From Nitrosospira sp. Nsp14 (GTDB taxonomy: Bacteria; Pseudomonadota; Gammaproteobacteria; Burkholderiales; Nitrosomonadaceae), in contig NZ_FOPV01000010.1 in assembly GCF_900113575.1 (NCBI RefSeq), positions 62,001 through 126,000 of the forward strand: DNA of 64,000 bases, in the 5' to 3' direction. Below the pieces are notes generated by a model. That model searched no databases. It was given only the letters and a program-made list of their open reading frames with translations, and had not been told where the DNA came from. The position numbers and the translations under genes were made by a program. Numbering within the stretch: the first letter of the stretch is position 1; each line of letters begins with the position of its first letter. Positions 42,936 through 54,548 of the stretch are shown here, piece after piece.

Positions 42936-43528
42936 GGCAAATGCTAGGTTTCAGGTGGAGGCTGATTCTATCACGGCCCTATCCGTCTTTTCCCCCCATG
43001 CACCGGGCACTGGGAATAGAGCCTCCGGAGGCTTGTTTAATTTGATGGGCAAAAGGGGGGGCAAGTTCTCTCCCACTACGGATAATCACTGCAGTTCCTT
43101 CAGCGAGCAGCGGTAACCGGAATCAAGCGCGAGAGCGGTCCGTGAAGTAGTGCGCGTGCCTCCGACACTCTTTCCAGGTGTTGCAGCAGACGTCCTTGTT
43201 ATGATGCAACGCGCCCCGGCTATGATTGATTGCGAGCGACCTGTCATACACCCGCCGCGTTTCCTCATACCGGCCAGCAGCGAATAACACATTGCCCACT
43301 CCCTGAGCGCTGCGGATGTTCGGGATCAAAATGCGGGCGCTACAGAAAGATGGAGGAAGCGACCTTGATTCCGGCGCAATGTTCACCTACAAAGTAGATA
43401 TAAACCTTAAGTGCCCTAGCCTTGGCTATTGCGGAATACAGCTGAGCTGCATCGTGCTGGACCAATTTTAATCGGCACAGCGCGCGCCGAACTGGTCACT
43501 TAACAGGGCGCCTTCTCCTATCACGACG
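42936..43528. other. intergenic region between metH and the P-type ATPase
   Basis: The 593 nt holds a 14-bp perfect palindrome (AGCCTCCGGAGGCT, 43020-43033) in the presumed metH leader and a decayed TPR fragment at 43086-43386. The remaining 140 nt before the ATPase shows no convincing promoter. This is the left boundary of the 43.5-51.6 kb accessory region. Confidence 0.4.
43086..43386 (-). pseudogene. probable remnant of a TPR-repeat protein
   Basis: One minus-strand frame reads GVGNVLFAAGRYEETRRVYDRSLAINHSRGALHHNKDVC, which fits a tetratricopeptide repeat (Gly8, Ala20 and Pro32-type spacing). A second frame supplies a plausible ending, TALALDSGYRCSLKELQ. The two overlap around 43130-43290, which suggests one or more frameshifts in a decayed gene. 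No start codon with a ribosome site is seen. An unrelated chance match remains possible. Confidence 0.35.
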
Positions 43529-46500
43529 ATGACTATTCTTTCCTATCCTTTGAAACATCGCGACACTGCCGAACCATCGCCGGGTGAGAGCAAGCTGATC
43601 GATCGGGTGCGTGTTGTTCACGCGCAGGTAAACGGCCGGGCCCGTCTTCAAATCGATGGTCTGTATCACTGCGAACCAATTCGACGCCGCGTCGAGTCGG
43701 CCCTGGCGCGGGAGGCCGGGATCAGGCAAGTTTCCGCGAATGTTCTCACAGGCAGGGTATTGGTTCTTTACGATCCTGCACGTACCGTTGACGAAATCAA
43801 AGGTCGGGTAGAGGAGCTATTGGCAAATCCGTCACCTCCGCCTTCCGAGCAGCGTCCGTCCTCAAATCTCTATCCCCTGCGGCCTGTGCAGCCGATGGTC
43901 TCTATGGATGGGAGCGCTGCTTCAGCGCAAGGACCAACCCAATGGCACACGTTATCCCGCACTGCGGTGCTGAAGGCGCTGGAAACGACGAAGGAAGGCG
44001 GACTTAGCCCAGCCTTCGCAGAGAAGAAACTTCGGCGTTTTGGCCCAAATAGCCTGCCTGAGACGCCACCGCGATCAGGATTGAGCATTTTCCTGGGGCA
44101 GTTCAAGAGCCTGCCGGTTGTATTACTAGGGGCATCAGCCGTGTTATCGGCCGCAACGGGCGGCCTTGCCGACGCCGTCGTGATCCTTGGGGTAGTGATA
44201 ATCAACGCGGGCACCGGCTACGTCACCGAGGCTCAGGCGGAGCGAACCATCAAGGCACTGGGCCATATCGGCCAGCAGCATGCCGCGGTGATTCGCGATG
44301 GCCAACTGGTTCAGGTGGAGGCTGAGGCCTTGGTGCCGGGCGATATCATGGTTCTGGTACCGGGAACTCGGGTAGGCGCGGATGGGCGAGTACTGGAATC
44401 GCGCAGCCTGATGGTAGACGAGTCCGCGCTTACTGGAGAAAGCCTGCCTGTCACCAAGCGCGTGGAGACCCTGGATACGCCGGAAGTGCCACTGGGCGAT
44501 CGGTTCAATATGGTCTACAAGGGCACGGCAATCACCGGCGGTAGTGGGCTGGCAGTGGTGGTGGGAACGGGTCGCTACACAGAAATTGGTGTCATCCAGG
44601 CGTTGGTAGGTGAAACGAGGCCGCCGGAAACCCCTATGCAGAAGCAGCTCGATGTTTTGGGTAACCAGATGGTGTTGTTATCCGGTGGTATTTGCGGGAT
44701 GATGTTTCTGATTGGGCTGGCAAGAGGATATGGCTGGCTCCAGATGCTGAAGACATCGATTTCCCTTGCCGTTGCGGCAGTGCCGGAAGGTCTGCCCACC
44801 GTTGCGACGACCACCTTGGCGCTCGGCATTCGCAATATGCGCCGGCGCCACGTGCTGGTGCGGCACCTGGACGCGGTGGAGACCTTGGGAGCGATGCAGG
44901 TGATCTGCCTGGACAAGACCGGCACCCTGACACTGAACCGAATGACAGTGCTTGCGGTTCACTGCGGAGGGCGCCACATCACGCTTGCCAACGATGTATT
45001 TCACGACCGCGGCATGAGGACGGACCCGGCTCAGAATGAGGAATTACTGCGTCTGGTGCAGGTGGGCGTGCTGTGCAACGAGACGGAAGTAAACGGTTCA
45101 GAAGGCGGCGGGTATGAGCTCAAGGGTTCGGCCACCGAAACCGCGTTGGTGCAACTGGCCATTGCCGCTGGCGTCGCCGTAGATTCGCTCCGCCGGCAGT
45201 ACCCTACCGTGCGGGTCGAATATCGTACCGAAAACCGCAACTTCATGCGCACTGTTCATACAGTGAAAGAAGGCGGGAAATTGGTCGCCGTAAAGGGCAG
45301 CCCGTCCGAGGTGCTGGAGATGTGCAAGTGGTGGATCAAGGACGGCATACGTCTGGCGCTCACGGAAACGGACCGCACCGCGATACGCATGGAAAACGAG
45401 CGCATGGCTGGGGAAGCGTTGCGCGTGCTCGGGTTCGCTTATGCGGAACAGGCGCAGGCCGATCAGCAACTGGCAGAGGAGTTCATCTGGCTTGGGATAA
45501 CCGGTATGGCGGACCCGGTGCGGCCGGGCGTTAAGGAGCTTATCGCGTTGTTCCATCAAGCGGGGATCGATACGATAATGATCACCGGTGATCAGAGTGC
45601 GACCGCCTATGCTATCGGCAAAGAGCTTGGGCTATCGCGCAGCGGGGAACTGGATATCCTCGATTCCACCAGACTGGAGCAACTCGATCCCGAGGTTCTT
45701 ACGGGATTGGCACAGAAGGTCAATATATTCTCCCGCGTCAGCCCTGCAAACAAACTTCAGATCATACAGGCGTTGCAGCGGAGCGGCAAAGTTGCCGCCA
45801 TGACGGGTGATGGAATAAACGATGGACCGGCGCTAAGGGCAGCCGATATCGGTGTCGCGATGGGCAAAACAGGCACGGATGTCGCACGGAGTGTATCGGA
45901 CGTGGTGCTGGAGGACGACGATCTCCGCACGATGATCATAGCGATCTCCGAAGGGCGGACGATCTACAATAATATTCGCAAGTCCGTCCATTTTCTCACC
46001 GCCACCAATCTCTCGGAAATCATGGTGATGGTGGGTTCCATCGGAAGCGGGCTCGGCACACCGCTTAGCACCATGCAGTTGCTATGGATCAATCTCGTGA
46101 CCGACATTTTTCCCGCCCTGGCGCTTGCCGTAGAGCCTCCCGAGCCGGACATTCTAAGCCGGCCGCCAAGAGATCCACGGGAACCCATCCTACGACCTGC
46201 TGATTTCAAGCGCTACGGATTTGAAGCATTTGCCATAACGGCAGGATCGATGTGCAGTTACGGCTACGCCGTGGCACGCTATGGCATCGGCCCGCAGGCC
46301 AACAGCGCCGCCTTCATGACCCTTACCGCCGCGCAACTGTTGCACGCTTATAGTTGCCGGTCCGACCGCCACAGCATTTTCAGCCGCACAGCACTTCAGC
46401 CTAATCCCTACCTCAAGCTGGCGCTGGCCGGAACGGGCGCATTGCAGTTAGCGTCCGTGGCGGTACCTGGGCTTCGAAGCCTGCTCGGAACCACTCTGCC

Positions 46501-46648
46501 GAGCCCGATGGATATGGCGGTGATAGCCGCAGGGTCAGGATTGCCGTTCCTTGTGAACGAAGCCACAAAAGCCGGGGCGCGTCAATTCGATCGCGAGGGG
46601 CGCGAGGAGCTTGCCTCTTCCGTCGGCGATACAGGGGGGACAGGATGA
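43529..46648 (+). CDS. P2-type cation-transporting ATPase with N-terminal HMA-like domain
   Basis: This 1039-residue P-type ATPase has the phosphorylation site ICLDKTGTLT (Asp 462), TGES at 302-305 and TGDGINDGPA at 759-768. The intramembrane motif is PEGLP (419-423), as in Ca2+/Mn2+-type P2 pumps, not the CPx motif of heavy-metal P1B pumps. The N-terminus (about residues 22-100) carries an HMA-like domain, VHAQVNGRARLQIDGLYHC, with no CxxC metal site. A cation_ATPase_N-type segment follows (about 140-190). The transported ion is unknown; Ca2+, Mn2+ or Mg2+ are the natural candidates. Its stop overlaps the start of a SAM synthetase paralogue (ATGA), so the two are translationally coupled. Confidence 0.88.
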   Translation: MTILSYPLKHRDTAEPSPGESKLIDRVRVVHAQVNGRARLQIDGLYHCEPIRRRVESALAREAGIRQVSANVLTGRVLVLYDPARTVDEIKGRVEELLANPSPPPSEQRPSSNLYPLRPVQPMVSMDGSAASAQGPTQWHTLSRTAVLKALETTKEGGLSPAFAEKKLRRFGPNSLPETPPRSGLSIFLGQFKSLPVVLLGASAVLSAATGGLADAVVILGVVIINAGTGYVTEAQAERTIKALGHIGQQHAAVIRDGQLVQVEAEALVPGDIMVLVPGTRVGADGRVLESRSLMVDESALTGESLPVTKRVETLDTPEVPLGDRFNMVYKGTAITGGSGLAVVVGTGRYTEIGVIQALVGETRPPETPMQKQLDVLGNQMVLLSGGICGMMFLIGLARGYGWLQMLKTSISLAVAAVPEGLPTVATTTLALGIRNMRRRHVLVRHLDAVETLGAMQVICLDKTGTLTLNRMTVLAVHCGGRHITLANDVFHDRGMRTDPAQNEELLRLVQVGVLCNETEVNGSEGGGYELKGSATETALVQLAIAAGVAVDSLRRQYPTVRVEYRTENRNFMRTVHTVKEGGKLVAVKGSPSEVLEMCKWWIKDGIRLALTETDRTAIRMENERMAGEALRVLGFAYAEQAQADQQLAEEFIWLGITGMADPVRPGVKELIALFHQAGIDTIMITGDQSATAYAIGKELGLSRSGELDILDSTRLEQLDPEVLTGLAQKVNIFSRVSPANKLQIIQALQRSGKVAAMTGDGINDGPALRAADIGVAMGKTGTDVARSVSDVVLEDDDLRTMIIAISEGRTIYNNIRKSVHFLTATNLSEIMVMVGSIGSGLGTPLSTMQLLWINLVTDIFPALALAVEPPEPDILSRPPRDPREPILRPADFKRYGFEAFAITAGSMCSYGYAVARYGIGPQANSAAFMTLTAAQLLHAYSCRSDRHSIFSRTALQPNPYLKLALAGTGALQLASVAVPGLRSLLGTTLPSPMDMAVIAAGSGLPFLVNEATKAGARQFDREGREELASSVGDTGGTG

Positions 46649-47835
46649 TGAAGCAGGATTTCATGTTTACCTCGGAATCCGTCACCGAAGGCCATCCGGA
46701 CAAGCTTTGCGATCAGGTGAGCGATGCGCTTCTCGATCGCTTTCTCCAGCAGGATCCGTTTTCAAGGGTTGTGGCCGAGTGCGCTGTCTCCAAGGGAATA
46801 CTATTTATTGCCGCACGCTTTGCCTCGGCGGGTTCGGTGGACATCCCCGAGGTAGCACGCCAAGTCATTGCGCAGATCGGCTACGAGCATACCGATTTCA
46901 ATGCCCGGGACTGCACAGTCATGACGAGCTTGATGGAACTGCCGTCGCCGCCATACCCAAACCTGGATGAGCGTGAAATGGACGAGGAAGAGATCGATGC
47001 CGTTACCGCGAAGAACCAGGGCAACGTGTTCGGCTTTGCCTGCAACCAGACTGCGGCCCTGATGCCGCTCCCCATCTGGCTTTCGCACAAACTGGCGCGT
47101 CGGCTGGGCGCGGCGCGTCTCCAGAAACAGCTGAGCTACCTCGCGCCCGACGGCAAGACGCAGGTGGGAGTGGAATATCGCGATGGCAGGCCCAACCGCA
47201 TCCATTCGATCACACTCGTGGCCAGCCAGCAGAGCAATACGCCGCGGGGTGTTCGGTCGTTACGCGACGACCTGTACCAGCATGTGATCGAGCCGGTGTT
47301 CCTGAACGAGCAGTTGCGCCCAGATGCCCGCACTCGTATTTTCATTAATCCGGATGGACCTATTATCGACGGAGGACCCTCGCTGCACTCCGGATTGACT
47401 GGTCGCAAGAGCGCTGTGGATACTTACGGCGAATATTCCCGCCATGCCGAGTCCGCGCTGTCTGGCAAGGACCCCTCGCGGATAGATCGCGTGGGTGCTT
47501 ATGCTGCGCGCTATGCCGCGAAGAACGTAGTCGCCGCTGGCCTGGCGCAGGCCTGCGAGGTCCACCTTGCCTACTCGCTTGGGATGGCAAGGCCAGTAAG
47601 CGTGCAAGTCGACAGCTTTGGTACCGGGCGTGTTCCGGATGCCGATATCGCCGACCGTATTCAAGCTCATTTCGACTTCCGCCCGGCCGCAATCATTGGT
47701 GCATTCAATCTGCGCTATCAGCCGCAGGTGTTTCGCGGCGGCTTTTACCGCAGACTTGCGGCATACGGGCATGTGGGACGGATGGATGTCGGGTTGCCGT
47801 GGGAGGGGACAGACAAGGCGCCACTCTTGGGCTAG
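46645..47835 (+). CDS. divergent S-adenosylmethionine synthetase (MetK) paralogue
   Basis: The 396-residue protein is clearly of the bacterial MetK fold. It has SESVTEGHPDKLCDQVSDALL (GHPDK at 16-20), INPDGPIIDGGPSLHSGLTGRKSAVDTYG, and SGKDPSRIDRVGAYAARYAAKN. It differs from housekeeping MetK at hallmark loops. The bacterial GAGDQGxMFGYA is KNQGNVFGFA (123-132), and the glycine-rich GGGAFSGKD is ESALSGKD (269-276). It may still bind ATP and methionine, but normal activity is not assured. It overlaps the P-type ATPase gene by 4 nt, a strong hint that it serves that system rather than general methylation. A housekeeping metK would be expected elsewhere. Confidence 0.88.
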   Translation: MMKQDFMFTSESVTEGHPDKLCDQVSDALLDRFLQQDPFSRVVAECAVSKGILFIAARFASAGSVDIPEVARQVIAQIGYEHTDFNARDCTVMTSLMELPSPPYPNLDEREMDEEEIDAVTAKNQGNVFGFACNQTAALMPLPIWLSHKLARRLGAARLQKQLSYLAPDGKTQVGVEYRDGRPNRIHSITLVASQQSNTPRGVRSLRDDLYQHVIEPVFLNEQLRPDARTRIFINPDGPIIDGGPSLHSGLTGRKSAVDTYGEYSRHAESALSGKDPSRIDRVGAYAARYAAKNVVAAGLAQACEVHLAYSLGMARPVSVQVDSFGTGRVPDADIADRIQAHFDFRPAAIIGAFNLRYQPQVFRGGFYRRLAAYGHVGRMDVGLPWEGTDKAPLLG

Positions 47836-47929
47836 CCCTAAATTGGACCGCGCGGTGGGCAAGTGCGGCGATTCCATGGGTGGGTCGATGTTAATTCGCG
47901 GAGACCGGCTTCCCCTTAAAAAAACCTCG

Positions 47930-48289
47930 TTAGATCAACGCAGCGATCAACGCCATGGCCGACCGTTCCAAAGCGGCTTCAACCAGTTTTTCCACAAATG
48001 TATCTGCTACCTTTTGCGCCGGGTCGACTTTGTATGTCAATGGGCGGTTGGCGTGCACATTGCGGATAAAGCCTTCGTCACGCAGGCTGTTCAGGATGGT
48101 GGTGGAGTTCACCAGCCCGACGTCGTACTTGATTACAATGCTGCCGGTAACAATGCTGACCTCATACTTCAGAACGCCGTGCATCCCGTTCAGATAAAGC
48201 TCCAGCTGGCGGACTTTCGATACGTTCTTCTTCAGGGCCGGTATCTGCACGCGCAACCGGCCGGGTACGTGGTGAACGTAATGAGCCAT
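47930..48289 (-). CDS. small HMA-like domain protein, no CxxC
   Basis: This 119-residue protein starts MAHYVHHVPGRLRVQIPALK. It has the beta-alpha-beta-beta-alpha-beta character of heavy-metal-associated domains (residues 1-80), e.g. YLNGMHGVLKYEVSIVTGSIVIKYDVG. There is no cysteine pair, so classical metal binding is unlikely. It matches what I recall as the HMA_2 type. The C-terminal part (about 85-119) forms an Ala-rich helix. The ATG at 48289 has GGAGG nine nt upstream. It is the last gene of the minus-strand operon and shares VHxxxGRxR with the ATPase N-terminus and with the protein at 50758-51249. Confidence 0.75.
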   Translation of the reverse strand: MAHYVHHVPGRLRVQIPALKKNVSKVRQLELYLNGMHGVLKYEVSIVTGSIVIKYDVGLVNSTTILNSLRDEGFIRNVHANRPLTYKVDPAQKVADTFVEKLVEAALERSAMALIAALI

Positions 48290-48371
48290 GTAAATAACCT
48301 CCGTTGGGTTCCTTTGCTTACGCGGTTATTTAAGCAGTGCTTTGTTACACGTTGATGAACTGCGAGAGGAA

Positions 48372-49361
48372 TTATTGAACGATCAGACTGATAATGAAGA
48401 AGTAAACGATAAGGCTGAGTACATCCTGAACAACGGTTGCAAGCGGACCGCTGCCGAAGGCTGGGTCTTTGCCCAGGCGGGAGAGTATCCAGGGAAACAG
48501 AAAGCCAATGGTGGTAGCAGCCGATCCCGCCACCAGCAGCGCCAGTGAAACCGCCAGCGCGAGCTGGAAATTGTCGAATATGAGCCAGACCGCAGGAAAG
48601 GTGAGCCCTCCAAGGGCAAGGCCAATGATAATTCCGGTTCGTAATTCACCTGCGATCAACGCGCCAACCGGCCCACGGCTCAAGGACAGACCGCGCACGG
48701 TAATGGCCTCGGTCTGGGTTCCGATCGCATCAGCCATGTAAACGAGCCCCGGGACGAAGAACGCAATGGCCATTTGCGACTGCAGTGCGCTTTCGAACTG
48801 GGCCATTATATAAGTTGCCAGCACGCTTCCGGCAAGTCCTACCAACAGCCACGGCAGCCTATCGCGTGCGCGGCGGATCGGCGAGGCCTCGATGGCGGTG
48901 CGGGCCTGCAGATTATAGTGGCGAATGCCGGCAAAGCGGTGCAGGTCTTCCACGTGTTCGTGACGTAATACTTCCAGCAGCGCTTGCGGCGGAACCACGC
49001 CTAGCAGGCGTTGCTGACCGTCCACTACCGGCACAGCAGCAATACCGTTGACGATCGCGAGCGAGGCAACGGTTTCCTGATCGGCCCCTGTGTGTACCGC
49101 GGGGAAGGGTTTGCGCAGAATATCGTGCAAGTACTGGTGAGGCGCCGCTGCGAGCAACCGGGGCATGGGTATCATGCCGATCAGGGTGTTTATCTCGTCA
49201 ACTACATAAACCGTATCGGCATAATCAAAGACATTGCCCGGTAATCTCTCCAGAACCGAAGCGACGGTCTCATCCGGATTTCCGGTGGGTACCCGTTTAA
49301 CCAGATGGCGGGCAGCAGTTTCACGCTGGCTGTTTTGCAGGTGCGAGTGAGAGTTCTGCAT
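48372..49361 (-). CDS. MgtE-type divalent cation transporter, short form
   Basis: The 329-residue protein has a CBS-domain pair (about residues 20-150; DYADTVYVVDEINTLIGMIP and AAVPVVDGQQRLLGVVP). A C-terminal MgtE membrane domain of about five helices follows (168-329), with IAFFVPGLVYMADAIGTQTEAITVRGLSL as the conserved entry. The N-terminal MgtE superhelical domain that gates typical MgtE channels is largely missing, so regulation by cytosolic Mg2+ may differ. It lies between the AxxxG protein and the small HMA-like gene on the same strand, consistent with a divalent-cation role for the cluster. Confidence 0.85.
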   Translation of the reverse strand: MQNSHSHLQNSQRETAARHLVKRVPTGNPDETVASVLERLPGNVFDYADTVYVVDEINTLIGMIPMPRLLAAAPHQYLHDILRKPFPAVHTGADQETVASLAIVNGIAAVPVVDGQQRLLGVVPPQALLEVLRHEHVEDLHRFAGIRHYNLQARTAIEASPIRRARDRLPWLLVGLAGSVLATYIMAQFESALQSQMAIAFFVPGLVYMADAIGTQTEAITVRGLSLSRGPVGALIAGELRTGIIIGLALGGLTFPAVWLIFDNFQLALAVSLALLVAGSAATTIGFLFPWILSRLGKDPAFGSGPLATVVQDVLSLIVYFFIISLIVQ

Positions 49362-49530
49362 AGCCTTGGTCTGGCTGGTCTTGTTGTGCTCTTAAAGACG
49401 GCCCAGACCCGAACGCGGGCCCCCGACCGTCTTTCACCCAGCTACGCCTAAACAGCAGCCGGGGTCCTTGCCGTCGGGCAAGGACCCGGACGTGCTGGCG
49501 CAAGCGCGGTAGCGCCCCGCGCCAGCAACA

Positions 49531-50454
49531 TTACGCTGGAGGAGGGGTACGGCCCGAGACTGGGGCAGTGCGATCCGGCGGAGGCACGCGATCCCGCTCG
49601 TCCAGCCGCGCGGCCGTGCCGGGTAATGCGGCGCTTGCAACATCCTTGACGCCCGTAACGACACTCAGAAGGATATCCCGCACGCTGCTGACCGCCGTGG
49701 TGCCGAAGCCGCCTACCGCCTCCGCTGCCCCGCTGGCCACCGCTCTCGCCGTTTCCACAGCGTTTCCGCCGGTCTCGTTTGTTGCTTCGAGTACTCCGTC
49801 CAAGGTTCGCTTCGCCACCATCAGGGTGTCGCCGCCTACAGCAGCGGTACCATTCACCGCAGCTTTTGCGGTCTCGGTAGCCGCCGAGATGACGTCCCCG
49901 CCCACGTCGGATACGCCGAGGGCCACACCTTTGGCGACGCTCTTGGTGGTAACCACCAGTCCGGTTCCGAGATCCTCCGTCGCCGCAAGGGCACCTTTCA
50001 CCACGTCCCGGGTGATGTTGACCGCTTCCGTACCGACAGCACCGGTTGCCCGGATGGAATTGGATACGGTGTTTCGCACCAAACTGACAATTTCCGTTTC
50101 GATTTCGTCAATGCCTCTGAGACTGGCGGCAATCCCTGTCTTTACAGTCGTGCCCGCTGCCCCGATGCTCCGGGCGGCCGCGCGAGACTCTGGCGTTGAA
50201 CCGAGGCGCTCTTCCTCTGCCTCGCGAGCGTAAGTATCCCGCTCGGGATGCGCTTCGCCCCTGGGGCGTGTTTCACCCTTGCGATAGGCTTCTTCGCGGG
50301 CGCGTGCCTCTTCATGCGGGCGCTTCTCTCCAGGCTGTCCCCCTGGATAGCCCGGCTCATTGGGGGAAATTTCTTCGTCGGCAGGGATTTCTTCACCTGT
50401 GTCTGAACCGTGGTGGGACGCCCCACCGTGCTTTCCTGTCTGTGCTTTCGCCAT
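49531..50454 (-). CDS. AxxxG-rich helical protein with charged N-terminal tail
   Basis: I do not recognise a named family for this 307-residue protein. Residues 1-90 are hydrophilic and disordered-looking, rich in Glu, Arg, Gly and Pro. Residues 95-275 are a low-complexity run rich in Ala, Gly, Val and Thr with recurring small-x-x-x-small spacing, for example GALAATEDLGTGLVVTTKSVAKG, read here as short pieces AATEDLGTG and KSVAKGVALG. This suggests long amphipathic or packing helices as in phasins, LEA proteins or membrane-coating proteins. The tail is Pro/Arg-rich. There is no signal peptide. A strong AAGGAGGT lies eight nt before the ATG at 50454. It belongs to the minus-strand operon. Confidence 0.7.
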   Translation of the reverse strand: MAKAQTGKHGGASHHGSDTGEEIPADEEISPNEPGYPGGQPGEKRPHEEARAREEAYRKGETRPRGEAHPERDTYAREAEEERLGSTPESRAAARSIGAAGTTVKTGIAASLRGIDEIETEIVSLVRNTVSNSIRATGAVGTEAVNITRDVVKGALAATEDLGTGLVVTTKSVAKGVALGVSDVGGDVISAATETAKAAVNGTAAVGGDTLMVAKRTLDGVLEATNETGGNAVETARAVASGAAEAVGGFGTTAVSSVRDILLSVVTGVKDVASAALPGTAARLDERDRVPPPDRTAPVSGRTPPPA

Positions 50455-50757
50455 TTCGAGTACCTCCTTGGTTGTCCATGTTTCGTAAATTACCTTCGAC
50501 TATGATCAAGAGCACGCGTCTGGCGCGTTTCTTTATATTGTCCGATTAAAACGTGAGCCTTTATACCTTGTACCCCTACCTTGCTCCTCGCTCCTCCTCC
50601 GCGAGCAGTCACCCGATCACCGAGGGGCTGAAAATCAGAAGCGTGCCCCCGGATTTACCCTTTGGGAAGGTGTGTACGGGATCAATAAACGCTTCCCCCG
50701 CGTTCCTGACCGCCCAGCGTCTCCAGCATATCCAGCATCGGCAGGGGCCGTTTCGTT
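50455..50757. other. 303-nt gap inside the minus-strand operon
   Basis: No gene is seen. It contains the ribosome site of the AxxxG-protein gene and a short hairpin (ACGCG/CGCGT, near 50514-50528). A separate promoter for the AxxxG gene could lie here, but I find no good -35/-10 pair. Confidence 0.35.
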
Positions 50758-51249
50758 TCAACCAAGCTCCGTATTGCTTACGCCATTTTCCCGGGACACC
50801 AGGTATGCATACCAGAATGCCGCTGCAGCCGGAATGGCGATGTTGCCCTCAATAGCCTGGGCAATGCCCATGCCCACCCACGCCAGGAATAGCAGTGGAC
50901 GCCAATTCGTCCGGTTGGTTTGGGCCGCTTTCGGTTTAGGTCCGCGTGCTTTCCTGGCTGGGGTTGCTGTTGCGGAGATCGGTGGTGCCATCTTGCGCAT
51001 TTCCGCCTCATTCTCGGGGACATGGAACAATCCCTGCTCTTCAGCACGCTGCCAAGGGGATGGGTCGTTTGCTATGTGATGCACCAATACGCTGGCCGTC
51101 CGGCTGTTTGTTTCTACCGCTGAAATACCCGGATAGTCCCTCAATGCGTTCTCCACCGTCGTGAAGTAGGTTTCATCCCCACGCTTTTCGTCGATCCTGA
51201 GACGCGTTCTGCCGGGCAGGCCATGCACCTCTCGCGCCAGCGGAGCCAT
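50758..51249 (-). CDS. HMA-like domain protein with C-terminal membrane segments
   Basis: This 163-residue protein begins with a second HMA-like domain (residues 1-70; REVHGLPGRTRLRIDEKRG and DYPGISAVETNSRTASVLVHH), again with no CxxC. A basic Ala/Pro-rich linker (about 85-112) leads to a hydrophobic region (about 115-155; PLLFLAWVGMGIAQAIEG and IPAAAAFWYAYLV) that could form two short membrane helices. The ATG at 51249 shares its A with the TGA stop of the DUF5132-like gene, so the two are coupled. The GRTR motif corresponds to GRLR and GRAR in the two other HMA-like proteins of the cluster. Confidence 0.72.
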   Translation of the reverse strand: MAPLAREVHGLPGRTRLRIDEKRGDETYFTTVENALRDYPGISAVETNSRTASVLVHHIANDPSPWQRAEEQGLFHVPENEAEMRKMAPPISATATPARKARGPKPKAAQTNRTNWRPLLFLAWVGMGIAQAIEGNIAIPAAAAFWYAYLVSRENGVSNTELG

Positions 51250-51632
51250 CACGCACCCGGCCCACCTTTTTTGCCCGCATCAGCACCGGTTTCGCTGTGC
51301 TTGGCTGGGGGCGGCGCAGACGGCGCGGGTGGGGGCTCATTTTGGCTGGGCTGCGAAGTAGCTGCCGTTGCCGTAGCTGCTGTCGCAGCCGGCGCGGCGT
51401 CGGCCTCCAGTTCTACCTTAGCCTCCGCCACCAGGTCGTCCATCGTCTCGCTCAATTCTGCAAACGATTCGCGTCCCTTGTCGTAAACGGTCATGCCGGT
51501 CTTGATGACCGACTTGGTCAGGGGTTTGGCGATGCGTGCCAACATAGGCAGCAGCACCGGTGCCAGCAGCGTGGCTCCGATGCCAGCGGCCAGCCCGGTG
51601 ACGACATTGCTTTTGAAAAAGTCTGAGGCCAT
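51249..51632 (-). CDS. DUF5132-like membrane-associated protein
   Basis: This 127-residue protein starts MASDFFKSNVVTGLAAGIGA and continues through a hydrophobic stretch (about residues 9-35; LLAPVLLPMLARIAKPLTKS). A charged helix (KGRESFAELSETMDDLVAEAK) and an Ala/Pro-rich tail follow. I recall this pattern as DUF5132, a family of unknown function. The hydrophobic part has glycine-zipper-like spacing (GLAAGIGA). AAAGGAGGG precedes the ATG and a good promoter lies just upstream, making it the first gene of the operon. It is coupled to the next gene by a one-base overlap. Confidence 0.72.
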   Translation of the reverse strand: MASDFFKSNVVTGLAAGIGATLLAPVLLPMLARIAKPLTKSVIKTGMTVYDKGRESFAELSETMDDLVAEAKVELEADAAPAATAATATAATSQPSQNEPPPAPSAPPPAKHSETGADAGKKGGPGA

Positions 51633-51664
51633 GGCTCACCCTCCTTTCTTGCTCTTAAAACGTA

Positions 51665-51692
51665 TTTATAGTCATTGCCTGCGGAAATTCAA
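51665..51692 (-). promoter_or_regulatory. sigma-70-type promoter for the DUF5132-HMA-MgtE operon
   Basis: On the minus strand TTGAAT (51692-51687) and TATAAA (51670-51665) are separated by 16 nt. Initiation near 51658 would give a leader of about 27 nt containing the AAAGGAGGG ribosome site of the first gene. Confidence 0.6.
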
Positions 51693-52173
51693 GTCCTGTC
51701 ACAAAAAATTCATATTGGAAAGAAATAGCATATTCATAAGCTTAGAACAGTTAGAGCTTGAGCAAATATTGAGGTCGCATTACTACGCCCCCCCTACGGC
51801 GTCGAGCGTCTTATCTCCCTTCTTCCCTGTTCCCAAGTTCGTCAATAATTCGAGGAATAGCGTCGGGATCCGGCGCGCCGACTACGCCGGACCGGGTGCA
51901 GCGGACCAGGAGTGGCGTAAAACAGTCTTTTTCCCGTGCGCTTACGTGCCAAAAAATCAACACCCCAAAGAGGTAGCCATGCTGTAACGTGCTTGTAACA
52001 CCTGTTCGGAAACAGAAAACTCAAAACAAATGCTTGACGATGCCGTTTGCTAACGTGTAATTTCAACTTCGATAGATGAACAATCGCACTGGCAGCAACT
52101 GGTTTGGAAACTTTTCTGTCCCTCGACGGACATAGCTCCTCGGCCCCACTAACTTGAAGCACGACCCAAGCCC
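51693..52173. other. divergent intergenic region, right edge of the accessory cluster
   Basis: No gene is convincing between the minus-strand operon promoter and the DUF445 gene. The left part is AT-rich. The only clear signal is the plus-strand promoter candidate at 52034-52061. Confidence 0.4.
52034..52061 (+). promoter_or_regulatory. candidate promoter for the DUF445 gene
   Basis: TTGACG (52034-52039) and TGTAAT (52056-52061) are spaced by 16 nt. The -35 has five of six consensus bases. It would give a leader of roughly 105 nt to the ATG at 52174. Confidence 0.5.
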
Positions 52174-53406
52174 ATGGAGTCATCTCGTGCCGGAAACCGG
52201 ATGCGTCGGCTGGCGACCGGCATGCTCATCGCGATGCTGGGTGTTCTGGTTCTCGCCAATGTGTTTCTCTCAGTCCACCCTTTGGTTGGCTATCTGCGAG
52301 CTTTCGCCGAGGCGGCGGTGGTAGGCGCAATGGCCGACTGGTTCGCGGTGACCGCCTTGTTTCGCCAGCCGTTAGGTCTGCCGATCCCCCATACCGCGAT
52401 TGTTCCCCGCAACAAGGATCGCATCGGCGAGGCGTTGGGCCGGTTCGTCGAGCTTAATTTCGCCTCTCCGGAAGTGGTTTCCTCCAAATTGGCGGGGGCC
52501 GACATGTCCGGCAAGCTTGCCCGGTGGCTGTCCGACCCCCAGCGCACTGAAGCAATCGCCGCCCACGTAACCCGTCTGATCCCGCAGCTGCTGGATTCCG
52601 TTGACGACCGTGATGTGCGTCGTTTTGTGTCCGGCGGCCTCGCGCACGGGGCGCAGCGCATCGATCTTGGGCCCCTGCTCGGGGAAGTGGTTGCCATGCT
52701 TACGGCGGAGAGGCGGCACCAGGTATTGCTCGACAAGTTGTTACGCGAAGCTGACGAATACATTACCGCCAACGAACCCCGCATTCGCGCGCGGGTGCGC
52801 GAGAGTACCGCCTGGCTTTGGCAACGGCTTGCAATGGATGAGAAAGTGGCTGACGGCGTAGTAGCCGTGCTGCGGGAAGCCTTCGCCGAGATCGGGCGCG
52901 ATCCCTCGCATCCACTGCGCCTCAGGCTCGATCAGGCTATTGAAAAGCTGGCGTCCGAATTGGCCACTTCGCCAGAGTATCGGGAGGAAATTGTCATGCA
53001 TACGCGCAAGCTGCTGGATCACCCCGCTCTGCGCACCTATGCCGCGGGAGTATGGCGCGACATTCGGGACAACCTGCGTGAGGATGCCTTAAGTGAGGAC
53101 TCCGTGCTTAAATCGTGGCTGCGGGAGATGATCGAAGCTGCTACCCAGGCATTGCTCCGTAACGATGGACTGCGTGGCCGTCTCAACAACTGGCTGCATG
53201 AAGTCGTGGTGGAGGTGGTGCAGTCGCATCAACACGACGTGGGCGTGCTCATTGCGGATACGGTACGCGGTTGGGATACCGAAACGGTAACTGCCCGGGT
53301 CGAGCGGCAGGTGGGTGAAGACCTCCAGTATATCCGTATCAACGGGACGTTGATCGGTGGGTTGGTGGGCCTGGCTATCTATGCGGTTTCGCGCGCTTTC
53401 GGCTAG
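52174..53406 (+). CDS. DUF445 family membrane protein (YjiN-like)
   Basis: The 410-residue protein matches the DUF445/YjiN family. An N-terminal membrane segment (about residues 13-35) leads into FAEAAVVGAMADWFAVTALFRQPLGLPIPHTAIVPRNKDRIGEALG, the family signature. A long helical soluble region and a C-terminal membrane helix (GTLIGGLVGLAIYAVSRAF) follow. The function is unknown. It stands alone on the plus strand between two minus-strand groups. Confidence 0.88.
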   Translation: MESSRAGNRMRRLATGMLIAMLGVLVLANVFLSVHPLVGYLRAFAEAAVVGAMADWFAVTALFRQPLGLPIPHTAIVPRNKDRIGEALGRFVELNFASPEVVSSKLAGADMSGKLARWLSDPQRTEAIAAHVTRLIPQLLDSVDDRDVRRFVSGGLAHGAQRIDLGPLLGEVVAMLTAERRHQVLLDKLLREADEYITANEPRIRARVRESTAWLWQRLAMDEKVADGVVAVLREAFAEIGRDPSHPLRLRLDQAIEKLASELATSPEYREEIVMHTRKLLDHPALRTYAAGVWRDIRDNLREDALSEDSVLKSWLREMIEAATQALLRNDGLRGRLNNWLHEVVVEVVQSHQHDVGVLIADTVRGWDTETVTARVERQVGEDLQYIRINGTLIGGLVGLAIYAVSRAFG

Positions 53407-53584: not shown

Positions 53585-54406
53585 TCAGCGAGCAGTTGGA
53601 ACCCAATGCCGCGCGAAGTCAGGTTCCTTATAATGATTTGCCTTCTGGCGCTTCGGCAGTTTGATCTTTTCCCGAGGGGGGGCCTCGTAGGGAATGGCAT
53701 CGAGCAGGTGGCTGATCACATCGAGCCGGGCTTGCTTCTTGTCGTCGGAGCGAACTGCAAACCACGGCGCCCAGTCGGTATCAGTGGCAGCGAACATTTC
53801 GTCTCGTGCGCGTGAATAATCGAACCAGCGACTGTAGGATTTGAGATCCATCGGCGACAGTTTCCAGATTTTGCGGAGGTCCGTGATACGTGCTTCGAGT
53901 CGACGCGTTTGCTCTTCTGGGCTGACCTCAAGCCAGTACTTAAGAAGGATGATGCCGGAATCGACGATGGCCTTCTCAACTGCCGGAACCATCTTCAGGA
54001 AGCGCTTGGCTTGTTCCTCGGAGCAAAAGCCCATTATCCGTTCGACCCCTGCTCGATTGTACCAACTCCGATCGAAGATCACGATTTCACCTGCTGCCGG
54101 GAGGTGAGGCAAGTAACGCTGGACGTACATCTGAGACTTTTCACGCTCGGTGGGCGGAGGTAATGCAATGACGCGAAACGTTCTCGGGCTCACACGCTCG
54201 GTGATGGCTTTGATGACACCACCCTTTCCGGCGCCATCCCGCCCCTCGAAGATGATGCATATCTTGGCGCCCGTACCTTTGGCCCACTCCTGAACCTTCA
54301 CCAGTTCGATGTGAAGATCCTGCAGTTTGCGAAGATACGCCTTACCCTTGAGGCGCTTATCGATCTCAGGCGCCATTTTCACGCTGTTCTCGTCTCCCAA
54401 TGCCAT
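53585..54406 (-). CDS. ppk2: polyphosphate kinase 2
   Basis: PPK2 transfers phosphate between polyphosphate and nucleotides. This is a single-domain protein of 273 residues. Walker A is IIFEGRDGAGKGGVIKAITE and Walker B is EIVIFDRSWYNRAGVERIMGF. The lid module YLEVSPEEQ-type segment is LLKYWLEVSPEEQTRRLEAR. The conserved C-terminal part is SPMDLKSYSRWFDYSRARD. The length suits the class I (NDP-phosphorylating) group, though class cannot be fixed by eye. The ATG at 54406 has GGAGG five nt upstream; an upstream GTG adds six residues. It is flanked by comM 3'-end copies. Confidence 0.92.
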   Translation of the reverse strand: MALGDENSVKMAPEIDKRLKGKAYLRKLQDLHIELVKVQEWAKGTGAKICIIFEGRDGAGKGGVIKAITERVSPRTFRVIALPPPTEREKSQMYVQRYLPHLPAAGEIVIFDRSWYNRAGVERIMGFCSEEQAKRFLKMVPAVEKAIVDSGIILLKYWLEVSPEEQTRRLEARITDLRKIWKLSPMDLKSYSRWFDYSRARDEMFAATDTDWAPWFAVRSDDKKQARLDVISHLLDAIPYEAPPREKIKLPKRQKANHYKEPDFARHWVPTAR

Positions 54407-54548
54407 TTCAACCTCCGTTGTCACCGGTCAGTCGACTTTAGCGGCCGCAGCGTCGGTATTTGCTCACGACCGGGTCCTCCTTGCTGGAATAACGCCTGAG
54501 CACCCCCCTGAGCCACGGACTGACGTTTGGAATATCAATAACAATTTA

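What the first reader, a model, noticed from the sequence alone, without database searches (positions are those of the whole stretch)
43529..51632. Two converging operons form an uncharacterised ATPase / SAM-synthetase-like / HMA-like / MgtE / AxxxG / DUF5132 system
Seen: a P2-type ATPase coupled (ATGA) to a divergent MetK faces a minus-strand operon of five genes: DUF5132-like, HMA-like with membrane helices, AxxxG-rich helical protein, short MgtE, small HMA-like. The region is bounded by a TPR remnant on the left and a gene-poor gap on the right, between housekeeping genes. Known: P2 pumps with PEGLP move Ca2+/Mn2+-like ions and MgtE moves Mg2+. Inference: the proteins work together on divalent cation handling at a membrane, perhaps with a coat or compartment made by the hydrophobic and AxxxG proteins. 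Ferrosome (fez) clusters, as I recall them, also pair a P-type ATPase with small HMA-like and hydrophobic proteins, but those pumps are P1B type, so this is only an analogy.
Basis: partly seen in the sequence, partly recalled or inferred. Interest (0 to 1): 0.82.

Follow-up and report, generated by a model that had tools for sequence, protein, structure and literature searches.

The report
Calcium-pump cluster with rewired SAM synthetase
A set of neighbouring genes, kept together in very different bacteria, pairs a calcium-type membrane pump with membrane-binding partner proteins and with a relative of SAM synthetase whose methionine-binding residues are replaced; it may build or fill a cation store that has not been described.

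Summary
All seven genes are real. Six occur together in 11 of 23 genus genomes (probably Nitrosospira). Across phyla the core is DUF5132, HMAtm, pump and MetK, one operon in Nitrospirota, often with AxxxG; MgtE is optional.

New findings:
(1) The pump is a PMR1/SERCA-like P2A ATPase with an N-terminal HMA_2-like domain; no CxxC in 78 of 78.
(2) The MetK is a separate clade. Of three residues that bind methionine in MAT, two are replaced in 58 of 58 and the third in 55; most phosphate/metal residues stay.
(3) This paralogue lies by the pump in 30 of 30 cases, ordinary MetKs in 0 of 30.
(4) The AxxxG protein is an 11/3 amphipathic-helix repeat, as in synuclein (43 of 43 rows).

Best mechanism (inferred, 0.4): a calcium-type pump on a coated membrane patch or compartment that stores divalent cations, perhaps with phosphate (Pst-PhoU, CorA, MntP or Na/Ca exchangers adjoin some clusters). 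Rival (0.33): a plasma-membrane efflux complex. Ferrosome membership is not met: the pump is not P1B.

The parts
43529..46648 (+). P2A-type (PMR1/SERCA-like) cation ATPase with N-terminal HMA_2-like domain
   Evidence: site residues E420, N827, E830, N855, T858, D859
43616..43783 (+). HMA_2-like domain of the ATPase (residues 30-85), GRxR motif, no CxxC
46645..47835 (+). MetK-like paralogue with altered methionine site (R58, L99, N124, H248)
47930..48289 (-). small HMA_2 protein (HMAs)
48372..49361 (-). short MgtE (two CBS + MgtE membrane domain); accessory
49531..50454 (-). AxxxG protein: 22-residue (2 x 11) amphipathic helix repeats, low hydropathy, membrane span unlikely
49639..50166 (-). 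the repeat region of the AxxxG protein (residues 97-272)
50758..51252 (-). HMAtm: HMA_2 domain followed by a hydrophobic hairpin
51249..51632 (-). DUF5132 protein: glycine-rich hydrophobic N-terminus, acidic helix

Best explanation
One membrane system. SHOWN: DUF5132, HMAtm, (AxxxG), an HMA-bearing P2A ATPase and a MetK-like paralogue occur together across phyla; the MetK-like protein belongs to its own clade with the methionine ligands replaced; the AxxxG protein is an 11/3 amphipathic repeat. INFERRED: the HMA_2 domains, basic and without CxxC, bind anionic lipid rather than metal and hold the pump, HMAtm and HMAs on one membrane patch; DUF5132 and HMAtm sit in that membrane; the AxxxG protein lies on its cytosolic face as a coat. 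The pump moves Ca2+ (or Mn2+/Mg2+) out of the cytosol, probably into a small internal compartment, and MgtE/CorA/MntP-type partners let divalent ions back or balance them. The MetK-like enzyme still binds ATP or triphosphate but takes another, probably anionic, substrate where methionine's amino group sat, so it would deliver PPi/Pi, or an adenosylated product, beside the pump. The result would be a cation (perhaps cation-phosphate) store comparable to an acidocalcisome or ferrosome.
For: Co-occurrence: 11 of 23 genus genomes; 17 of 24 DUF5132-bearing Nitrospirota (an 18th cut at a contig end) and 7 of 12 in the class sample. MetK paralogue beside the pump 30 of 30, ordinary MetK 0 of 30. Ion-site residues kept in 77-78 of 78. 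11/3 helix in 43 of 43 rows, 0 of 200 shuffles each. In L125 a protein weakly matching Pfam Apolipoprotein (E 2e-5, 24.7 bits, cut-off 90) lies between HMAtm and MgtE. Accessory genes: Pst permease genes in 11 loci (10 genomes); CorA right behind MetK in 6; Na/Ca exchanger near 4 P2 loci and 4 P1B sister clusters; MntP in L122.
Against: No localisation or ion data. Six of 46 HMA-pump loci have none of MetK, DUF5132, HMAtm, AxxxG. AxxxG was detected in only 14 of 46. Pst genes lie mostly by Nitrospirota clusters, one gamma and (about 7 kb off) one Desulfobacteraceae locus, so common descent may inflate the link. PPK2 beside the window cluster (53585-54424) was not found beside the cluster in relatives. 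The diagnostic acidocalcisome H+-PPase is in 23 of 23 genus genomes, with or without the cluster. Ordinary P2 pumps of the comparison set keep the same ion-site residues. No structure prediction could be run.
Confidence: 0.4

Rival explanations
1. Plasma-membrane Ca2+/Mn2+ efflux complex: the pump exports the ion from the cell, HMA_2 domains and small partners are lipid- or partner-sensing regulators, and the MetK-like protein is an ATP-sensing regulatory subunit. No compartment.
For: Pump family and site residues as in exporters; six of 46 HMA-pumps stand without MetK, DUF5132, HMAtm or AxxxG, as a plain efflux pump might; Na/Ca exchangers and MntP near some clusters.
Against: Does not explain an amphipathic-helix coat protein or a strictly paired enzyme paralogue with a largely kept triphosphate site.
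Confidence: 0.33
2. The MetK-like protein is still a SAM synthetase that feeds a local methylation (for example of lipids) at the pump's membrane.
For: Pfam N/M/C domains, and TIGR01034 over its cut-off (364 v. 309.4 bits); most catalytic residues kept.
Against: Glu70 replaced in 58 of 58, Gln113 in 55 of 58, Asp258 by His in 58 of 58; these bind methionine in MAT (PMC6850014, PMC7271947, passages), though Gln113Ala alone kept about 76% activity (PMC6850014). A canonical metK was found in 18 of 19 genomes (not in G408, a MAG). Of 22 recurrent neighbour groups nine were identified by Pfam, none a methyltransferase; the other 13 were not identified.
Confidence: 0.12
3. Two unrelated operons that lie side by side; the MetK pairing is a frozen accident.
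For: They converge in this genus; MgtE, HMAs and AxxxG come and go.
Against: Single operon in Nitrospirota, other layouts in gammas, same partners; 30 of 30 pairing.
Confidence: 0.03
4. Ordinary metal-resistance (heavy-metal efflux) island with HMA metallochaperones.
For: HMA annotation; sister clusters have P1B pumps.
Against: No CxxC in 78 of 78 pump HMA regions and a P2A pump.
Confidence: 0.07

Closest known systems
Ferrosome (fez) operons
   Same: Small hydrophobic and HMA-like proteins grouped with a P-type ATPase (recalled); sister clusters found here pair the same DUF5132/HMA_2 families with P1B pumps
   Different: Pump here is P2A, not P1B; no DUF4405 (FezC-like) Pfam hit; MetK paralogue and 11/3 repeat protein. 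The make-up of fez operons and the P1B-6 type are recalled: the primary papers were not held
Acidocalcisomes / volutin granules
   Same: Ca2+-type ATPase; phosphate transport genes beside some clusters; H+-PPase in the genome
   Different: No granule shown; H+-PPase not linked to the cluster; polyphosphate kinase not conserved beside it in the genus
PMR1/SPCA, bacterial lmo0841-type and SERCA Ca2+-ATPases
   Same: Nearest solved relatives (8iwp, 6zhf, 2dqs); ion-site residues
   Different: Own clade with N-terminal HMA_2-like domain; below TIGR01522/01116 cut-offs
S-adenosylmethionine synthetase (MetK/MAT)
   Same: Fold domains and most of the catalytic/triphosphate/metal residues
   Different: Separate clade; methionine ligands replaced
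Calcyanin / CoBaHMA proteins of CaCO3-forming cyanobacteria
   Same: Basic HMA domain without CxxC plus a Gly-rich helical repeat (recalled resemblance)
   Different: Separate proteins here; primary papers not held, CoBaHMA not found in the library, no sequence compared
Synuclein, perilipin and apolipoprotein 11-mer repeat proteins
   Same: 11/3 helix periodicity, membrane span unlikely, polar and apolar faces; that these proteins have 11-mer repeats is recalled
   Different: No sequence homology shown; different residue make-up

Membership tests
Ferrosome (fez) system | P1B(-6) ATPase | tested here: not met
   Best NCBIfam TIGR01522 PMR1-type, 615 bits, v. TIGR01525 heavy-metal type 239 bits
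Ferrosome (fez) system | FezC / DUF4405-like cytochrome | tested here: not met
   No DUF4405 hit among the seven proteins or the two right-hand neighbours; FezC as DUF4405-like from PMC11334425 (passages)
Ferrosome (fez) system | Membrane-bounded iron granule | not testable with these tools
   Needs microscopy
Acidocalcisome | V-type H+-PPase (PF03030) | tested here: inconclusive
   Present in 23 of 23 genus genomes, with and without the cluster; diagnostic per PMC3198990 (abstract)
Acidocalcisome | Ca/polyphosphate-rich membrane-bounded granule | not testable with these tools
   Needs EDX / cryo-EM
Acidocalcisome | Phosphate/polyphosphate genes linked | tested here: inconclusive
   Pst permease genes in 11 loci (10 genomes), in none of the 18 control pump loci; PPK2 of the window not found beside the cluster in relatives
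SAM synthetase (MetK) | Methionine-binding Glu70, Gln113, Asp258 (human numbering) | tested here: not met
   E in 0 of 58, Q in 3 of 58 (column uncertain by one), D in 0 of 58 (all His); canonical rows 19 of 19 for each; roles from PMC6850014 and PMC7271947 (passages)
SAM synthetase (MetK) | His29, Asp31, Glu57, Lys181, Arg264, Lys265, Lys285, Lys289, Asp291 | tested here: inconclusive
   58, 58, 57, 43, 57, 58, 58 of 58 for the first seven, Asp291 58 of 58 (columns for 285 and 291 are labelled K269 and DR there); Lys289 is Arg in 76 of 76 rows
P2A Ca2+-ATPase | Ca-site residues of TM4, TM5, TM6 | tested here: met
   E309 77, N768 78, E771 77, N796 78, T/S799 77, D800 78 of 78, SERCA numbering (recalled)
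P2A Ca2+-ATPase | Transported ion | not testable with these tools
   Needs transport assay
Heavy-metal HMA domain | CxxC metal site | tested here: not met
   0 of 78 pump HMA regions
CoBaHMA | Conserved basic residues on the HMA fold | tested here: inconclusive
   [GSNH]RxR in 76 of 78 pump regions; H10, R15, R17 invariant in 23 HMAtm; family definition recalled, not compared
11-mer amphipathic lipid-coat proteins | 11/3 helix (98.2 degrees) hydrophobic moment | tested here: met
   43 of 43 rows peak at 98.0-98.75 degrees
11-mer amphipathic lipid-coat proteins | Binds lipid surfaces | not testable with these tools
   Needs liposome assay

The most novel reading that the evidence does not exclude
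A widespread, undescribed bacterial organelle-like system in which a lipid-tethered Ca2+-type pump, under a synuclein-like protein coat, is served by a neofunctionalised SAM synthetase that no longer uses methionine but turns ATP into PPi/Pi (or adenosylates an anion) at the pump, filling a cation-phosphate store.
Probability: 0.3. Interest if true: 0.93.

Novelty: new variant of a known kind. Interest (0 to 1): 0.8.

Why it matters
If the MetK-like protein has stopped using methionine, it would be, as far as I recall, the first member of the SAM-synthetase fold with another job, and its strict pairing with a calcium-type pump says what to test it with. The cluster also gives a genetic handle, in relatives of Nitrosospira, Methylococcus and filamentous cyanobacteria, on how bacteria may store calcium, magnesium or manganese, an old open question behind volutin granules, acidocalcisomes and intracellular carbonates.

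Tried and rejected
Pump-MetK fusion: L077 and L075 looked fused in one reading frame, but L077 runs through what reads like frame-shifted sequence at the pump's C-terminus and its HMA part lies in another frame, and L075 joins partial domains; the fusion claim was dropped. PPK2 as a member: rejected, not found beside the cluster in genus relatives. DUF445 as a member: follows the cluster within the genus but lies about 50 kb off in G008 and on another contig in G012, and is not independent of phylogeny. Riboswitch as ion clue: none at E <= 1 in window 43000-52400; six loci gave only a tRNA. Defence system: no PADLOC hit. Promoter-like sites no more than in shuffles; terminator-like 14 v. 9.1 +/- 3.4. 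Published description: searches for DUF5132 (0 papers), CoBaHMA (0), HMA2 domain/PF19991/P1B-6 (7 listed, none on this by title and abstract start) and MetK with P-type ATPase, neighbourhood and HMA terms (1 listed, a copper-delivery paper) found none; the library lacks most subscription journals and the ferrosome, calcyanin and CoBaHMA primary papers. The first pump tree had rows cut wrongly because my motif was too strict; redone, with 31 of 87 rows skipped because the new motif missed them.
Full report
OBSERVATION. Pfam and NCBIfam give: a P2A cation ATPase, best TIGR01522 (PMR1-type) at 615 bits, below its cut-off of 798; a MetK over the TIGR01034 cut-off (364 v. 309.4); MgtE with two CBS stretches, matching only model positions 162-446 of TIGR00400; HMA_2 in the small HMA protein, and below cut-off in HMAtm and at residues 30-85 of the ATPase; DUF5132; and nothing for the AxxxG protein. 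The genome has three HMA_2 hits (E <= 0.001) and all three are in this cluster. ATPase/MetK and HMAtm/DUF5132 overlap by four bases.

WHERE. The nearest named match is Nitrosospira sp. Nsp2 (L028, 81%). Its contig has the same length as one of G015, a same-genus genome, so the window is probably Nitrosospira. Of six genus genomes each has a canonical metK; the four with the cluster (G000, G002, G006, G010) have two MetK, the two without (G003, G021) one.

ONE SYSTEM, WITHIN THE GENUS. HMA_2 was found in 12 of 23 genus genomes. Eleven (own included) have ATPase, MetK, HMAs, AxxxG, HMAtm and DUF5132 together in the same arrangement; in G012 the HMAs gene is split over two frames. G016 has only a broken ATPase. 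MgtE is intact in 4 of the 11 and a remnant in G012. MetH and/or DUF445 (some as pieces at contig ends) lie on the flanks in 10 of the 11 fetched regions, not in G012.

ONE SYSTEM, ACROSS PHYLA. Of 46 with an HMA-bearing P2 pump and at least 900 bases downstream, MetK is adjacent in 36, DUF5132 near in 28, HMAtm in 26, AxxxG in 14, HMAs in 11, MgtE in 1; six have none of MetK, DUF5132, HMAtm or AxxxG. Of 18 ordinary P2 pumps from the same scan none has any partner; 16 loci (truncated or divergent) were set aside. Because that scan was centred on the pump, others were centred elsewhere. (i) DUF5132 in the class sample: 12 of 369 genomes. Seven of the 12 (own included) have the HMA pump with MetK in the stretch read; four others (L120, L127, L128, L129) lie on short contigs or at a contig end; L124, on a complete chromosome, has DUF5132 and HMAtm but no such pump within about 9 kb. 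(ii) DUF5132 in Nitrospirota: 26 of 198. The 24 besides G408 and G409 were read: HMA-P2 pump in the cluster in 17, an 18th cut at the contig end; a P1B pump with HMA in five; no pump in one (L177). MetK follows the pump in 14 of the 15 whose contig runs on. HMAtm is next to DUF5132 in 20 of 24. There the order is one operon, DUF5132-HMAtm-(AxxxG)-ATPase-MetK. (iii) MetK itself: 19 of 198 Nitrospirota and 11 of 194 cyanobacteria have a copy that stands clear of the rest (541.8 bits or more v. 362.7 or less; 641.8 or more v. 449.1 or less); a truncated copy in G458 was left out. All 30 have the pump's C-terminal part beside them (L250 only weakly, 54 bits, about 1.25 kb away); none of the 30 ordinary MetKs fetched in the same calls has it.

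THE PUMP. Closest solved structures are the human secretory-pathway pump (8iwp), a bacterial Ca2+-ATPase (6zhf) and SERCA. In 78 system pumps (only identical copies removed) the ion-site residues, in SERCA numbering as I recall it, are kept: E309 77, N768 78, E771 77, N796 78, T/S799 77, D800 78; the TM8 position is Gln in 69. The 30 comparison pumps mostly keep them too (28-30 of 30), so these point to Ca2+-type transport without proving the ion. The HMA region has no CxxC in 78 of 78 and a [GSNH]RxR motif in 76. With the HMA part cut off, all 36 HMA-bearing rows fall into one clade of 40, apart from 16 others (SH-aLRT 100, quick method; 31 rows skipped because my motif missed them).

THE METK-LIKE PROTEIN. 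58 distinct system sequences form one clade against 19 canonical ones (100/100). In human MAT the methionine main chain is held by Glu70, Gln113 and Asp258 (PMC6850014 and PMC7271947, passages). Counted on 58 rows: Glu70 is Arg 51, His 6, Met 1; Gln113 is Gln in 3; Asp258 is His in 58. Canonical rows keep each in 19 of 19. Kept: His29 58, Asp31 58, Glu57 57, Arg264 57, Lys265 58, Lys285 58, Asp291 58; Lys181 only 43; Lys289 is Arg in 76 of 76 rows, copies included. Residues were matched through the E. coli alignment and by the spacings given in the papers; the exact partner of Gln113 is uncertain by one column, but no QSP motif is seen in the nine system rows shown. PMC6850014 reports that phosphatase activity persists in mutants with little SAM formation, Asp258Gly of MAT alpha-1 among them, and that Gln113Ala alone costs little. 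Two acidic ligands of an amine turned basic suggest an anionic substrate; this is inference.

THE AXXXG PROTEIN. Residues 97-272 read as eight 22-residue repeats (lag 22, z 6.9). In 43 of 43 rows matching the family model at E < 1e-40 (three are second reads of the same gene) the hydrophobic moment peaks at 98.0-98.75 degrees, the 11/3 helix angle, and none of 200 shuffles reaches it in any. Maximum 19-residue hydropathy is 0.98-1.73, so membrane spans are unlikely. In another gammaproteobacterial cluster (L125) the gene between HMAtm and MgtE codes for a protein weakly matching Pfam Apolipoprotein (E 2e-5, far below the cut-off).

NEIGHBOURS THAT HINT AT FUNCTION. Pst permease genes are found in 11 loci (10 genomes: eight Nitrospirota, gamma L121, Desulfobacteraceae L068), PhoU in 9 loci; identity was confirmed with NCBIfam for L179 and L121. 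None was seen in the 18 control pump loci. In L121, L174, L175 and L179 they run in the direction of the pump, in L030/L164, L032, L171, L172 and L176 divergently, and in L068 they lie about 7 kb away, convergent. CorA directly follows MetK in six Nitrospirota loci (Pfam for L032); MntP lies in L122; Na/Ca exchangers were grouped in eight loci, four with P2 pumps (L056, L059, L064, L065) and four sister clusters. Shared ancestry makes these counts less independent than they look.

SISTER CLUSTERS. Five Nitrospirota have DUF5132 and HMA proteins with a P1B-like pump; three of the five pumps were tested and all exceed the TIGR01525 cut-off (L185, L192, L194). Beside them lie Na/Ca exchangers (Pfam: L190, L194), a ParA/MipZ-like ATPase and TMEM175 (L190) and an LCIB-type carbonic anhydrase (L194). 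This suggests a wider family of HMA_2/DUF5132 pump clusters that may include ferrosome operons, but no fez sequence was compared.

VERDICT. A real, conserved system for which my searches found no description. Mechanism inferred: a lipid-tethered divalent-cation pump on a coated membrane, with a repurposed MetK, filling a store (0.4), against a plasma-membrane efflux complex (0.33). I rate it a new variant of a known kind (pump-centred storage or efflux clusters) because its function is not shown; its gene content matches no system I know or found in the searches.

Noticed in passing
52174-53406 (+): A DUF445 gene beside the cluster follows it within the genus: 12 of 12 genomes with the cluster or its remnant v. 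1 of 11 without, though it lies about 50 kb off in G008 and on another contig in G012; in two of the 12 only pieces at contig ends were seen.
   Followed up: partly
53585-54424 (-): PPK2 polyphosphate kinase next to the region; in L027 (same order) a PPK2 lies directly beside a P-type ATPase with an HMA match of the P1B-like kind.
   Followed up: partly
L190, L193, L194: P1B sister clusters with two or more DUF5132 genes beside Na/Ca exchanger genes; ParA/MipZ-like ATPase confirmed by Pfam in L190 (similar gene start in L193), TMEM175 in L190, LCIB-type carbonic anhydrase in L194.
   Followed up: partly
L048, L055, L061, L065, L073, L120, L123, L124, L126, L128, L129, L130: EcsC-family gene near the DUF5132 or pump cluster in 12 genomes, most or all of them gammaproteobacteria.
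   Followed up: no
L033:9324-9902: Cyanobacterial protein that joins DUF5132 with the C-terminal part of HMA_2.
   Followed up: no
L022:9462-11293: Genome G016 keeps only a two-piece ATPase between MetH and DUF445: a decaying cluster.
   Followed up: no
L161, L069 (both G417): One cyanobacterial genome (Fischerella) holds two copies of the pump-MetK pair.
   Followed up: no
   Followed up: no
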